Positions 60 to 64,000 of a DNA stretch of 64,000 bases are shown in pieces. Source of the stretch: Pseudalkalibacillus salsuginis (GTDB taxonomy: Bacteria; Bacillota; Bacilli; Bacillales; Fictibacillaceae); contig NZ_JAKJHW010000001.1 in NCBI RefSeq assembly GCF_021646685.1, positions 62,001 to 126,000 of the forward strand, in the 5' to 3' direction. The notes under the pieces were generated by a model. That model did not search any database. It was not told the origin of the DNA and was given only the letters and a program-made list of their open reading frames with translations. The position numbers and the translations under genes were made by a program. The stretch's first letter is position 1; each line of letters opens with the position of its first letter.

Positions 60-498
60 TACGTCTATATTGTTCATATGTATGAGCTGGTAAAGTCATT
101 CCGTGAGATTCAATAACTTTATACCCAGCGAGGTTCGGTGCTCTCTAAAGTGGTGGATAGTGATATGCAATATATTTTGTGAGTTCCACTGTACAACCCA
201 ACTGATTGCGAAAAATAACTCAAACAACGAAAGCCCTGCCTCTCTTCCGTCCTTACGACTCCTCGGCCGCGCCAGTGTGATTCAGTTACCGTACGTGCTT
301 TTAACTCCCTTCTACTCAAATTGTTTCCTTGTCTGAAAAAATAGATTAAATGGAGATCAAAAGAGGGGTTGAAAATGTGGATTAAACATTTTTTAGTGCA
401 CGCTTTGTAGAGCACATGATGCCCTTTATGATTCTTCTCATAAAGGAAGCTTAAACCAATTTTTCTTGGAAGGTCTTTTTTGAGGACCCAGAAAATAC
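60..498. other. Intergenic stretch without a recognised gene
   Basis: About 440 bases left of the cold-shock gene terminator. The open frames here overlap each other, carry no family signature and include the terminator, so I do not call them. There is a perfect 9-bp hairpin (423-446, loop GAAGAA on the minus strand) and a GTGC/GCAC stem around 393-412, so the stretch may encode a structured RNA on the minus strand. Function is unknown. Confidence 0.4.
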
Positions 499-3036: not shown

Positions 3037-3206
3037 AAGAAAAGCGCAATCGCCCTGGTTAACCACGAAGGTCACTGAAAGTCCGAAGAGGAGGCTCGAA
3101 CCAAACAAAGTTCGGTTCTGCGTGGGTAAACACTTCGACTTAAATCAATGTGTCGCCGCCGCAGGACTGGAGTGATCCAAGTGGTTGGGCGGTGGAACTA
3201 GACATC
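3037..3206 (+). repeat. Dispersed hairpin repeat, copy A (long form)
   Basis: Begins AAGAAAAGCGCAATCGCCC and ends GGAACTAGACATC. The paired arms AACCAC/GTGGTT and AGTCC/GGACT are intact. Between GGCT and GTCGCC it carries an insertion of about 55 bases that includes the stem CGAAC/GTTCG. It shares layout and sequence with copies at 20326, 20444, 48552, 62780 and 62896. Confidence 0.9.
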
Positions 3207-3234
3207 ACTTCAATTTTTATGCTTTCTTATCCTT

Positions 3235-3273
3235 TAAAAAAGGCTCTTTACACCCTTAAAAATGTTTTGAGCC
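3235..3273 (-). terminator. Terminator of the small membrane protein gene
   Basis: Minus-strand stem GGCTC/GAGCC (3242-3246, 3269-3273) with a 22-nt loop and a T-rich tail of seven. It follows the stop at 3279 directly. The loop is long, so strength is uncertain. Confidence 0.55.
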
Positions 3274-20325: not shown

Positions 20326-20443
20326 AAGAAAAGCGAAAACGCCCTGTTTAACCACGAAGGTCACTGGAAGTCCGACGAGGAGGCTGTCGCCGCCGCAGGA
20401 GGACTGAAGTGAGCCAAGTGGTTGGGCGGTGGAGCTAGACATC
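20326..20443 (+). repeat. Dispersed hairpin repeat, copy B (short form)
   Basis: Short form without the apical insertion. Arms AACCAC/GTGGTT and AGTCC/GGACT are intact; GGTCACT/AGTGAGC has one mismatch. It joins copy C head-to-tail at 20444, the second copy starting directly after GACATC. Confidence 0.95.
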
Positions 20444-20607
20444 AAGAAAAGCGCAAACGCCCTGTTTAACCACGAAGGTCACTGGAAGTCCGACGAGGAG
20501 GCTCGAACCAAACAAAGTTCGGTTCTGCGAGTGCAAACACTTCTAACCAAATCACTGTGTCGACCGCCGCAGGAGGACTGAAGTGAGCCAAGTGGTTGGG
20601 CGGTGGC
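20444..20607 (+). repeat. Dispersed hairpin repeat, copy C (long form, 3' end truncated)
   Basis: Begins AAGAAAAGCGCAAACGCCC. The apical insertion carries CGAAC/GTTCG and AGTG/CACT stems. It ends after GGCGGTGG and lacks the last AGCTAGACATC. Confidence 0.95.
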
Positions 20608-20643
20608 TATTTAAACAAAATTGTTATACATTCTTGTCAAAGA

Positions 20644-20685
20644 AAAAGCGGGTGCTCATGCTTCATAAGCACTCCGCTTCAAAAA
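20644..20685 (-). terminator. Terminator downstream of the pan operon
   Basis: Minus-strand AAGCGGAGTGCT/AGCACCCGCTT hairpin followed by TTTCTTTG. It lies about 140 bases past panD. It may stop read-through towards the repeat pair and dinG. Confidence 0.65.
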
Positions 20686-23057: not shown

Positions 23058-23101
23058 GAGTTAAAACGCTTTCAAACTTTCATCCCTCTGTCCATGTCCC
23101 A

Positions 23102-23185
23102 GGTTCGGATCAAGGCAGAACCATAATCATAATCAATCACATATATTACACATTCGGAAAGTGCAGTTCGTTGATACGATACCGC
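23102..23185 (-). ncRNA. Structured panB leader, candidate pan RNA motif
   Basis: Just inside the predicted start, minus-strand GCGGT-A-TCGT/ACGA-ACTGC (23163-23185) forms a 9-bp hairpin with one bulged A. A second hairpin GGTTC/GAACC follows (23102-23122), then the intrinsic terminator. Rfam lists a pan motif upstream of pan genes, with bulged adenosines in its stem; I cannot check the consensus here. No T-box core was found. Confidence 0.45.
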
Positions 23186-23195
23186 CTATAAGTGT

Positions 23196-46736: not shown

Positions 46737-46779
46737 AGTAGAAGTGATCCAAGTGGTTGAGCGGTGGAGCTAGACATCA
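46737..46779 (+). repeat. Dispersed hairpin repeat, copy D (3' fragment)
   Basis: Only the last third: GAAGTGATCCAAGTGGTTGA through AGCTAGACATC. No matching 5' arm precedes it in the flank, so the element has been cut. Confidence 0.85.
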
Positions 46780-46832
46780 CTTCAGTGCTATCATTAGAAA
46801 TAACATTAACCTTCGACAACACCAAAATAAAA

Positions 46833-46855
46833 AAGACTCCTCGTATTGGAGTCTT
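46833..46855 (-). terminator. Terminator of spoIVA
   Basis: AAGACTCC/GGAGTCTT stem with a 7-nt loop and TTTTATTTT tail on the minus strand, just after the stop codon of spoIVA. Confidence 0.9.
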
Positions 46856-48551: not shown

Positions 48552-48667
48552 AAGAAAAGCGTAAATGCCCTGGTCAGCTATGAAGGTCACTGGAAGACCG
48601 ACAAGGAGGCTGTCGCCGCCATAGGAGGACTGAAGTGATCCAGGTGGTTGGGCGTTGGAGCTAGAAA
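48552..48667 (+). repeat. Dispersed hairpin repeat, copy E (short form)
   Basis: Short form. AATGCCC/GGGCGTT and AGCTAT/GTGGTT can pair with wobbles only, and GGTCACT/AGTGATC is kept. AGACC/GGACT has one mismatch. The end is altered to AGCTAGAAAATC. Confidence 0.9.
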
Positions 48668-48705
48668 ATCAATCGAAACAAAATCTTTATACTTTCTTAT
48701 CTTTC

Positions 48706-48751
48706 AAAAAAAAATCCCTCCTTTTCTACACTTTATTGGTAGAAAGGAGGG
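48706..48751 (-). terminator. Terminator of yphF
   Basis: TCCCTCCTTTCTAC/GTAGAAAAGGAGGGA stem on the minus strand followed by nine T, a few bases past the stop at 48759. Confidence 0.9.
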
Positions 48752-54397: not shown

Positions 54398-54537
54398 ACA
54401 AAGCTCCCAACCTTACTTACAGTCTTTATTCAAAGTATGGAAAAAAGAGCTCTTTTCTAACCCTCCGAAAGTGGAGGACTGAATGGAATAATGCATTCTT
54501 AAAATACTGTCTTTAATCATTAAGTGATAATCACGAC

Positions 54538-54582
54538 AGTGACCTTCGTGACTAACCGGGTCGTTTCCGCTTTTCTCTAGCT
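54538..54582 (-). repeat. Dispersed hairpin repeat, copy F (5' fragment, inverted)
   Basis: On the minus strand it reads AAAAGCGGAAACGACCCGGT followed by TAGTCACGAAGGTCAC, the first third of the element. The rest is missing. Orientation is opposite to the other copies. Confidence 0.75.
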
Positions 54583-61633: not shown

Positions 61634-61802
61634 TTACATCGTCCCGTTTCCAATCCATTTTTTTCTATGGTATCACGAGTAGCCATGATTTTGTTATATT
61701 AAATATAGTTCTTGGAACAATCGCTGTTAACTCTATGCTTAGACGGATGGTTACAAGAATCGAATGTGTTTAACAAAAAATTTAGGAACGAGGTTGAGAT
61801 TT

Positions 61803-62777
61803 ATGAAAGAAATTCTTGTAATTCATACGGGCGGGACGATCGCAATGAGTGAGGATAAAGAAACCGGGAAAGTCATCCCTGGAGATGTCAATCCCCTTCA
61901 CGAAACCTATGCACTCCTTTCCCAAATTGCAAAGGTTACGATGGATGATTTCTTAAATCTTCCGTCTCCACATATCACGCCAGAGCAGATGATCAAGCTG
62001 TCGAACTATATACACATGAAAATCGAACAAAAAAACTTCGACGGTGTCGTGGTCACACACGGAACGGATACATTGGAAGAAACAGCCTATCTCCTTGATC
62101 TGCTTCATGATGGCGAGACTCCAATCATTATGACAGGTGCTATGCGGTCCAGTAATGAGTTAGGTTCAGATGGCCCCCATAATCTCATCACATCGGTAAG
62201 GGCGGCTGCGAGTGATGATGCGAAAGGTAAAGGGGTATTGGTTGTATTCAATGATGAGATCCATGCTGCTAAGTATGCGACGAAAACCCATACGAGCAAT
62301 ATTGCAACGTTCCAGAGTCCTCAATCAGGTCCGATCGGCATCATTACGAAACGAGGTGTATTGTTCCATCATAACCTCGTTCACCGTGAGCATTATGACA
62401 CATCAAGTGTTTCAATGAATGTCGTCTTGTTGAAGGCTTATGCGGGCATGCAAAAGGAGCTGTTGCAGGCTGTTCGTACCACGGAAATTGATGGGCTGGT
62501 CATCGAAGCACTGGGACAAGGGAATCTCCCCCCTGACCTGATGGAGGAGATTGGTCATTTCATTGATAATCAGATTCCAATTGTGATGGTATCCCGCTGT
62601 TTCAATGGAATCGTCCAAGACATCTATAGTTATGATGGTGGGGGACGTAAGCTGAAAGAGCGCGGTGTGATATTGACGAACGGATTGAATGGCCCCAAAG
62701 CTCGCTTGAAACTGTTGGTGACATTAGAAATGAACTATAATATGGAACAATTGAGGGAAGCATTTTCATCGAATTGA
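61803..62777 (+). CDS. ansA: L-asparaginase, type I
   Basis: 324 residues from ATG at 61803. VIHTGGTIAMS (about 5-15) and VVTHGTDTLEETAYL carry the two catalytic Thr sites and the HGTDT signature. It has no signal peptide, so it is cytoplasmic. Convergent with ypdA, with two copies of the dispersed repeat between. Precedes no partner gene (ansB is absent). Confidence 0.9.
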   Translation: MKEILVIHTGGTIAMSEDKETGKVIPGDVNPLHETYALLSQIAKVTMDDFLNLPSPHITPEQMIKLSNYIHMKIEQKNFDGVVVTHGTDTLEETAYLLDLLHDGETPIIMTGAMRSSNELGSDGPHNLITSVRAAASDDAKGKGVLVVFNDEIHAAKYATKTHTSNIATFQSPQSGPIGIITKRGVLFHHNLVHREHYDTSSVSMNVVLLKAYAGMQKELLQAVRTTEIDGLVIEALGQGNLPPDLMEEIGHFIDNQIPIVMVSRCFNGIVQDIYSYDGGGRKLKERGVILTNGLNGPKARLKLLVTLEMNYNMEQLREAFSSN

Positions 62778-62779
62778 TC

Positions 62780-62895
62780 GAAAAGCGAAAACGCCCTGAT
62801 CAGCCACGAAGGTCACTGGAAGACCGACGAGGAGGCTGTCGCCGCCACAGGAGGTCTGAAGTGATCCAAGTGGCTGGGCGTTGGAGCTGGACATC
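62780..62895 (+). repeat. Dispersed hairpin repeat, copy G (reference short form)
   Basis: Starts directly after the ansA stop. All stems pair: AACGCCC/GGGCGTT, AGCCAC/GTGGCT, GGTCACT/AGTGATC, AGACC/GGTCT, GGC/GCC. Joined head-to-tail with copy H. Confidence 0.97.
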
Positions 62896-63013
62896 AAGAA
62901 AAGCGAAAACGCCCTGATCAGCCATGAAGGTCACTGGAAAACCGACGAGGAGGCTGTCGCCGCCACAGGAGGCCTGAAGTGATCCAAGTGGCTGGGCGTT
63001 GGAGCTGGACATC
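62896..63013 (+). repeat. Dispersed hairpin repeat, copy H (short form)
   Basis: Nearly identical to copy G; AGCCAT/GTGGCT keeps pairing by a wobble, but AAACC/GGCCT loses the fourth stem. The high identity to G suggests a recent duplication. Confidence 0.97.
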
Positions 63014-63014
63014 A

Positions 63015-63046
63015 AGAAAGGGACTAGATCATTCCAGGTCAGTCCC
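63015..63046 (-). terminator. Terminator of ypdA
   Basis: GGGACT/AGTCCC stem (63020-63025, 63041-63046) on the minus strand with TTTCTTG tail, overlapping the stop codon of ypdA. Confidence 0.7.
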
Positions 63047-64000
63047 TATTTTTGATCCTATTCAATAACTCTTTTGCAATCAACCCCCCGTGGAATCGAC
63101 CATTTTCAATGAAAATCTCATTTGCATTATTGCCTGCAGCAATTACACCTGAAATGAAAATGCCGTTTACGTTTGTTTCCATCGTTTCAGGATTGAACAG
63201 CGGTCTACCGGTTTCCTTCTCAATCCCCACTCCCATTTTAGACAAGAACGTATGATCAGGATGATAGCCTGTCATGGCAAAGACAAAATCATTCTGAATC
63301 TCTTTCAACCTGCCATTGTTCTCATATACAAGGGACTTTTCTTTAATTTCGATGACCCTGGCATTGAACTCCATCTTCACTTTTCCGTTCCTGACCAACG
63401 ATTCGAATTCAGGAAGAATCCACGGTTTAATACTACCGGAATACTCAGAACCTCTATACAAGACAGTTACCCGAGCTCCAACCTTTTCCAGTTCAAGGGC
63501 AGCGTCAACAGCTGAATTTTTCCCGCCAATGACAGCAACATCACGATCAAAAAATGGATGTGCCTCTTTAAAGTAATGAAATACTTTATCAAGATCTTCA
63601 CCGGCAACACCCATGTAATTCGGATGATCATAATATCCTGTCGCAATGATGACAAAAGGCGTCTCATAAGTCTGCTCATCTGTATTCTGTTTCTTAGAAC
63701 GTACGATAAATAATCCATCTTCCCGTTTATCTACACTCATGACTTCTTCAAATGCATGGACCGTGAGCTTTTTCCTTTTCACGACTTCCCGATAATAAGA
63801 TAATGCCTGGTTCCGTTTAGGTTTCCGTTGTTCGATGACAAATGGTACGTTTCCGATTTCCAGCTTTTCGCTCGAGCTGAAAAACTGCTGGTGAGTAGGA
63901 TAACGATAGATCGAATTGACAATATTCCCTTTTTCAATGACGATTGGTTTCAGGCCGATCTCCTCTAATGCAATCGCTGCAGAAAGGCCGCAGGGACCAC
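63039..64000 (-). CDS. ypdA: Bacillithiol disulfide reductase YpdA (5' end outside window)
   Basis: About 319 codons inside the window; roughly the first 10 residues lie beyond the right end. FAD loop GGPCGLSAAIALEE near the start and an NADPH loop IGGKNSAVDAALELE, as in the flavoprotein YpdA family. It reduces bacillithiol disulfide. The open frame continues unbroken to the window edge, so the ATG at 63782 is internal. Functionally linked to bshA/bshB1 in this window. Confidence 0.9.
   Translation of the reverse strand, partial: GPCGLSAAIALEEIGLKPIVIEKGNIVNSIYRYPTHQQFFSSSEKLEIGNVPFVIEQRKPKRNQALSYYREVVKRKKLTVHAFEEVMSVDKREDGLFIVRSKKQNTDEQTYETPFVIIATGYYDHPNYMGVAGEDLDKVFHYFKEAHPFFDRDVAVIGGKNSAVDAALELEKVGARVTVLYRGSEYSGSIKPWILPEFESLVRNGKVKMEFNARVIEIKEKSLVYENNGRLKEIQNDFVFAMTGYHPDHTFLSKMGVGIEKETGRPLFNPETMETNVNGIFISGVIAAGNNANEIFIENGRFHGGLIAKELLNRIKNRD

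What the first reader, a model, noticed from the sequence alone, without database searches (positions are those of the whole stretch)
62780..62895. Dispersed ~115-nt repeat that folds into one long, covarying hairpin
At least eight copies or fragments occur in 64 kb (3037, 20326, 20444, 46737, 48552, 54538, 62780, 62896), all outside genes. In copy G five stems nest in order. Between copies the second stem changes from AGCCAC/GTGGCT to AACCAC/GTGGTT, and the fourth from AGACC/GGTCT to AGTCC/GGACT: both sides change together, which supports a paired structure. Copies E and H keep several pairs through G-U wobbles, which fits RNA (or single-stranded DNA), although H breaks one stem and E and B have mismatches. 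Two AGGAGG tracts lie near the apex. The family could be a non-autonomous element, a REP-like target, or a structured RNA. It may already be known as an unnamed Bacillaceae repeat.
Basis: partly seen in the sequence, partly recalled or inferred. Interest (0 to 1): 0.75.

Follow-up and report, generated by a model that had tools for sequence, protein, structure and literature searches.

The report
Hairpin mobile DNA downstream of terminators
The repeat is one of roughly 250 sites in this Pseudalkalibacillus genome of a small non-coding mobile DNA hairpin, widespread in Bacillus-like bacteria and apparently undescribed, which inserts just downstream of genes' transcription terminators, mostly in one orientation relative to the replication fork, by an enzyme that remains unidentified.

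Summary
All eight window copies exist (two are fragments). A core pattern occurs 189 times in the genome (reversed control 0), and a profile over 1.264 Mb gives 90 hits in 75 clusters. The hairpin covaries strongly across genera. A variant (L) carries about 55 nt more at the apex. It behaves as mobile DNA. Filled/empty pairs between two roughly 96%-identical species place insertions directly behind a terminator T-tract, with no clear target duplication. P. decolorationis has about 130-140 copies, most with identical half-sites. Copies follow the leading strand: 66/75 overall, and 20 of 22 where genes converge. Wobble counts give little support for selection on a transcribed RNA, and Rfam has no match. 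The likeliest explanation is a non-autonomous element inserted through single-stranded DNA at the fork, its own 3' end mimicking a terminator. The enzyme is unknown: neither a Y1/RAYT transposase nor a group II intron reverse transcriptase tracks it, and no gene-bearing copy was found.

The parts
62778..62893 (-). Copy G: complete S (short) hairpin unit, 3' member of a tandem pair; its 3' end abuts the stop codon (62777) of the facing gene 61764-62777
62896..63011 (-). Copy H: complete S unit, 5' member of the tandem pair; 95.7% identical to G
63020..63046 (-). Terminator-like hairpin (GGGACTGACC...AGTCCC followed by TTTC) of the gene 63039-63782 (-), directly upstream of the G/H pair; leader missing here
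3037..3204 (-). Copy A: L (long) unit with apical insert
3205..3235 (-). Leader of copy A (AAAGGATAAGAAAGCATAAAAATTGAAG..)
3242..3268 (-). Terminator-like hairpin before copy A (T-tract follows)
20444..20614 (-). Copy C: L unit, upstream member of an L-S pair
20326..20441 (-). Copy B: S unit, downstream member of the L-S pair
20615..20640 (-). Shortened leader of the C-B array (ACAAGAATGTATAACAATTTTGTTT..)
20648..20674 (-). Terminator-like hairpin before the C-B array
46740..46795 (-). Copy D: 5' fragment (model positions 21-76), downstream of a terminator-like hairpin at 46835-46853
48552..48667 (-). Copy E: S unit
48668..48702 (-). Leader of copy E (AGATAAGAAAGTATAAAGATTTTG..), preceded by hairpin and T-tract at about 48704-48751
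54537..54578 (+). Copy F: 3' fragment in the opposite (lagging) orientation; its orthologue in the close species G005 is longer

Best explanation
A non-autonomous, non-coding mobile DNA element. Its natural strand reads terminator T-tract - AT-rich leader (core AAGTATAA) - long hairpin - CTTTTCTT. New copies enter directly behind the hairpin and T-tract of an intrinsic terminator, in the terminator's direction, without a clear target-site duplication, and mostly with this strand on the leading strand of replication. Most likely an enzyme supplied in trans recognises the hairpin-plus-T-tract shape in single-stranded DNA of the lagging-strand template (which has the leading-strand sequence) and joins the element there; the element's own 3' end (hairpin plus TTTTCTT) has the same shape, so it can serve as the next target. 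Shown here: mobility, target, orientation bias, long-term selection for pairing. Inferred: the single-stranded route, recognition by shape, and the enzyme, which was not found.
For: Mobility: in 444 kb of G000 against 400 kb of G005, six clean filled/empty pairs from G000, for example C7:364458 (CCTCTTTGTC^ATGT), C7:416718, C7:180386, C7:403587. At the window G/H locus G003, G004 and G007 lack the element and G006 carries a different family behind the same terminator. P. decolorationis: 130/142 half-site matches, 77 of the 5' halves identical over 38 nt. Target: by a strict detector 24/45 leader-bearing copies follow a terminator hairpin, against 51/3000 random positions and 0-2 of about 44 shifted; the same is seen in several other genera. 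Self-targeting: several recent copies sit right behind another element's 3' end. Orientation: 66/75 on the leading strand, 20 v 2 in convergent gaps (p=1e-4); complete genomes G001 15/17, G037 16/19, G019 14/18. Structure: covariation score 0.658 v 0.185 shuffled and at most 0.126 slid; 21/24 pairs compensatory on an unfitted alignment.
Against: No mobilising enzyme was identified. PF01797 is absent from five element-bearing genomes (G011, G015, G017, G045, G046) and group II intron RT homologues from many element-rich ones. Strand bias is absent in G042 (15/28) and marginal in G051 (29/45). Two 5'-end variants among otherwise identical P. decolorationis copies are not explained by a simple cut-and-join model. 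Polarity of most G000/G005 differences rests on two genomes, and at least one (window copy A) is a deletion in G005. Terminators are predicted, not measured.
Confidence: 0.66

Rival explanations
1. A structured RNA (regulatory RNA or 3'-UTR element) that happens to be repeated; the hairpin works after transcription.
For: Very strong covariation; long stable hairpin next to genes; with all 28 pairs counted G-T exceeds A-C (58 v 26).
Against: The G-T excess comes from two column pairs in poorly aligned helices; without those and their neighbour G-T is 17 and A-C 23 of 1023 cells, whereas tRNA stems in the same data give 19 and 0 of 276. Copies lie behind terminators, are polymorphic between close species and sit beside unrelated genes; no Rfam match.
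Confidence: 0.1
2. A REP-type element mobilised by the resident RAYT (Y1 transposase) of the IS200/IS605 superfamily.
For: Fits the DNA hairpin, absence of clear target duplication, leading-strand orientation and location behind genes; a single RAYT-like gene is in the genome and a copy lies about 390 bp upstream of it.
Against: That RAYT is directly preceded by four GGTGCCAGGCAC repeats, a separate dispersed family more likely to be its own; only one other of 30 Y1 loci has a copy nearby, beside an IS200; five element-bearing genomes lack PF01797; size and GTAG tag do not fit.
Confidence: 0.2
3. A SINE-like passenger of a group IIC intron reverse transcriptase, which also targets terminators and primes from replication-fork strands.
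For: The same unusual target is described for IIC introns (PMC4424553); class C-like RT fragments or genes in G000, G002 and G005.
Against: No RT homologue in element-rich G051, G052, G042, G035, G019 or G013; the complete group II intron in G000 is not behind a terminator; the element has no intron domain V.
Confidence: 0.1
4. A MITE of a classical DDE transposon (short inverted ends AAGAAAG / CTTTTCTT).
For: Non-coding, high copy, short inverted terminal similarity visible.
Against: No consistent target duplication in filled/empty pairs; terminator and strand preference are unusual; no parental transposon with these ends in about 2 Mb of sampled genome or among incomplete copies of P. decolorationis.
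Confidence: 0.12

Closest known systems
REP/BIME elements with RAYT transposases
   Same: Small dispersed DNA palindromes, downstream of genes, non-autonomous (PMC3733652)
   Different: Three times longer, no GTAG tag, AT-rich leader, bound to terminators, fork-oriented, no RAYT association
Group IIC introns
   Same: Insertion directly behind intrinsic terminators; replication-fork primers (PMC4424553)
   Different: No ribozyme domains, no reverse transcriptase, 150-210 nt instead of about 2 kb
bcr1 repeat of the Bacillus cereus group
   Same: About 150-bp structured, apparently mobile Bacillus repeat listed as a MITE (PMC2267715, PMC3733652)
   Different: The bcr1 sequence was not compared here; bcr1 is reported as restricted to the B. 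cereus group, whereas this family spans many Bacillales families
Bhal-1 stem-loop family of B. halodurans
   Same: Intergenic stem-loop repeat in a related host (PMC2267715)
   Different: 74 bp; its sequence is not in the text held, so identity could not be tested

Membership tests
REP (RAYT-associated) | 20-40 bp palindrome with a GTAG or CGTC tag at one end | tested here: not met
   Unit is 116-171 nt, ends TGTCTAGCT...GCGCTTTTCTT
REP (RAYT-associated) | RAYT gene flanked by copies of the repeat | tested here: not met
   Copies beside 2 of 31 Y1 loci, one of them an IS200; the own RAYT is preceded by another repeat
Group IIC intron | Insertion directly after an intrinsic terminator | tested here: met
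Group IIC intron | Domain V / group II ribozyme | tested here: not met
   No Rfam match in 62700-63100 even at E=1
MITE of a DDE transposon | Target-site duplication | tested here: not met
   None consistent in the filled/empty pairs
MITE of a DDE transposon | Terminal inverted repeats shared with a parental transposon | tested here: inconclusive
   Only about 7 nt inverted similarity; no parent among about 2 Mb sampled
IS200/IS605-derived non-autonomous element | No target duplication and lagging-strand-template insertion | tested here: met
   bias absent in G042
IS200/IS605-derived non-autonomous element | Cognate Y1 transposase acting on the hairpin ends | not testable with these tools
   No consistent Y1 partner; biochemistry needed
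Structured RNA family (Rfam) | Match to a covariance model | tested here: not met
Structured RNA family (Rfam) | Strand-specific wobble tolerance in helices | tested here: inconclusive
   17 G-T v 23 A-C at 25 pairs, 58 v 26 at all 28; tRNA control 19 v 0

The most novel reading that the evidence does not exclude
A distinct class of short mobile DNA spread through Bacillales that uses the host's terminator hairpins, exposed as single strands at the replication fork, as landing sites, ends in a terminator mimic so that each copy is a landing site for the next, carries variable sequence at the hairpin tip, shares its leader with at least two other terminator-linked families, and is moved by an enzyme not yet linked to such elements.
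Probability: 0.35. Interest if true: 0.82.

Novelty: new variant of a known kind. Interest (0 to 1): 0.6.

Why it matters
Hundreds of copies per genome in many Bacillales families with no Rfam family and no description found in the papers searched is a sizeable blind spot. The element shows terminators acting as insertion sites for a tiny non-coding element, with a replication-strand bias that can be measured. P. decolorationis, with most copies identical, offers a living system in which to look for the enzyme, and the family gives a ready explanation for many structured intergenic repeats that could otherwise be taken for regulatory RNAs.

Tried and rejected
RAYT as mover: co-occurrence and flanks do not support it. 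Group II intron RT: not consistently present; the intron in G000 is not behind a terminator. A gene-bearing autonomous copy: halves paired across about 2 Mb of big loci and among incomplete copies in P. decolorationis gave only small apical inserts, truncations or chance pairs flanking housekeeping genes. Rfam: none. Plasmids: one partial match; phages: none. Literature: sequence and keyword searches found nothing specific. Orientation as a by-product of gene direction: rejected, since convergent gaps still give 20 v 2.

Full report
CHECK OF THE OBSERVATION. Six are complete units and two (46737, 54538) are fragments. A core pattern of 30 bases with up to 3 mismatches has 189 matches in the 4.29-Mb genome and none for the same pattern read backwards. 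A profile built from 50 copies and run over 60 evenly spaced 20-kb stretches plus the window (1.264 Mb) gave 90 hits in 75 clusters, which extrapolates to roughly 250 sites. Unit length is bimodal: 116 nt (S) and about 171 nt (L). A few copies (XL) carry, beyond the L insert, about five tandem 53-nt repeats at the apex.

ORGANISM. Two congeneric genomes share contig lengths with Pseudalkalibacillus decolorationis DSM 14890 (G002) and with Alkalihalobacillus sp. YIM B00296 (G005), so the window belongs to Pseudalkalibacillus or a very close genus.

TRUE ANATOMY. Sorted by flanks, the copies read 5' AAAGGATAAGAAAGTATAAAAATTTTGGTTGCGGTGAAG-N-N-A - TGTCTAGCTCCAACGCCC ... GGGCGTTTGCGCTTTTCTT 3', with a sharp 3' border and a conserved leader. 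The leader core AAGTATAA is also seen in other families, for example Mesobacillus and G037, and is shared by at least two other repeat families of this genome. In tandem arrays only the hairpin unit is repeated; the leader stands at the left end only. Where L and S occur together in the listed arrays L is upstream.

STRUCTURE. Within the genome covariation is modest. Across genera it is overwhelming: on 46 model-fitted rows 25 of 28 pairs have double changes, 93.4% of cells pair, and the covariation score is 0.658 against 0.185 +/- 0.011 shuffled and at most 0.126 when slid. An independent MAFFT alignment of 33 copies gives 21 of 24 predicted pairs with compensatory changes. The fitted alignment leans toward its structure, so the unfitted one is the safer statement. 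Wobble use does not look like RNA: excluding three ambiguous pairs, G-T 17 and A-C 23 of 1023 cells, against 19 and 0 of 276 in tRNA stems. With all pairs the counts are 58 and 26, the excess lying in two column pairs, so this is supporting evidence only.

TARGET. Upstream flanks show hairpin plus T-tract directly before the leader in most leader-bearing copies. A strict detector finds such a terminator ending within -30..+5 of the leader in 24 of 45, against 51 of 3000 random positions and 0-2 of about 44 shifted positions. The same arrangement appears in several other genera.

MOBILITY. The syntenic region of G005 (flanks mostly 92-98% identical) shows clean filled/empty pairs: C7:364458 CCTCTTTGTC^ATGT, C7:416718 CCCATTTTTA^ATCATG, C7:180386, C7:403587, C7:368713 and C7:147059. 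No consistent target duplication is seen. At the window's G/H locus, G003, G004 and G007 have the terminator without any element, G005 has L+S, and G006 has a member of another family at the same place, so insertion is the likely polarity. Window copy A is the opposite case: G005 keeps only a 3' remnant. Tandem number also changes (three S units at C7:341443 against one), and the two window units G and H are 95.7% alike but 88-91% like the G005 unit, as expected of concerted evolution. In P. decolorationis 77 of 130 5' halves are identical over 38 nt; 20 fetched copies have one of two 5' variants, are followed by A in nearly all cases, and several lie right behind another element's 3' end.

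ORIENTATION. 66 of 75 clusters lie on the gene-rich strand, which agrees with GC skew in nearly all stretches. In convergent gaps, where gene direction cannot decide, 20 of 22 follow the leading strand (p = 1.2e-4). Complete genomes agree for G001 (15/17), G037 (16/19) and G019 (14/18), not for G042 (15/28), and G051 is marginal (29/45). These replichore counts assume the origin at the contig start.

DISTRIBUTION. With the covariance model 51 of 60 relatives and 22 of 30 genera have copies. In a class-wide draw of 200 genomes there were 21 with matches: own, 11 others of the order, and 9 from one other family. Named hosts include Cytobacillus, Mesobacillus (eight tandem 123-bp units), Psychrobacillus and Scopulibacillus. 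One partial plasmid match and no phage match were found.

MECHANISM. Shown: mobile, non-coding in the copies examined, terminator-linked, usually fork-oriented, hairpin maintained by selection over long times. Inferred: insertion through single-stranded DNA on the lagging-strand template, with the terminator hairpin and T-tract recognised by shape and the element's own hairpin plus TTTTCTT serving as the next target. The lagging-strand route of IS200/IS605 elements is from general knowledge; the terminator target and fork primers of IIC introns are from PMC4424553. Neither system's enzyme tracks this family, and no gene-bearing copy was found. The mover is therefore unknown.

VERDICT. A real, large and apparently undescribed family of non-autonomous mobile DNA hairpins. 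It works like a hybrid of REP elements and terminator-targeting IIC introns but meets the membership tests of neither.

Noticed in passing
L073, L080, L099, L118 (for example L080 rc 2255; L118 5416): Two further repeat families (ends ..GGCTCAGCC..GGCAAAGCCCGAGTTTTCTTTA) with the same AAGAAAGTATAA leader, also directly behind terminators; G006 carries one at the site where the window has copies G/H.
   Followed up: partly
L081 4484-4948, L120 4713-5172, L074 13151-13552: XL copies: the hairpin apex holds about five 53-nt tandem repeats (ATAAGACCTTTATGAAGCACTTACAACGCGAAAAACCGATCTTAAGGTACTC).
   Followed up: partly
L061 1120-1276: Four GGTGCCAGGCACTTTC repeats directly upstream of the single RAYT-like gene; the palindrome is dispersed in the genome and may be the RAYT's own REP.
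   Followed up: partly
L360 5721-6617 (Mesobacillus campisalis): Eight head-to-tail copies of a 123-nt unit of the same family.
   Followed up: no
L187-L206 (P. decolorationis): Otherwise identical copies begin with one of two 5' variants, ATGAGTAAAG or CACGTTAAG; unexplained by a simple insertion model.
   Followed up: no
L258 8960-9060; L231: Another common Bacillaceae-type repeat (GCGGGAAA..GACCCCGCAG..) is fused upstream of some degenerate copies.
   Followed up: no
window 214-300 and 23084-23188: Rfam matches BsrC sRNA and the pan motif.
   Followed up: no
L122 1023-2931: Complete group II intron with a 442-aa reverse transcriptase in the same genome, not behind a terminator.
   Followed up: partly
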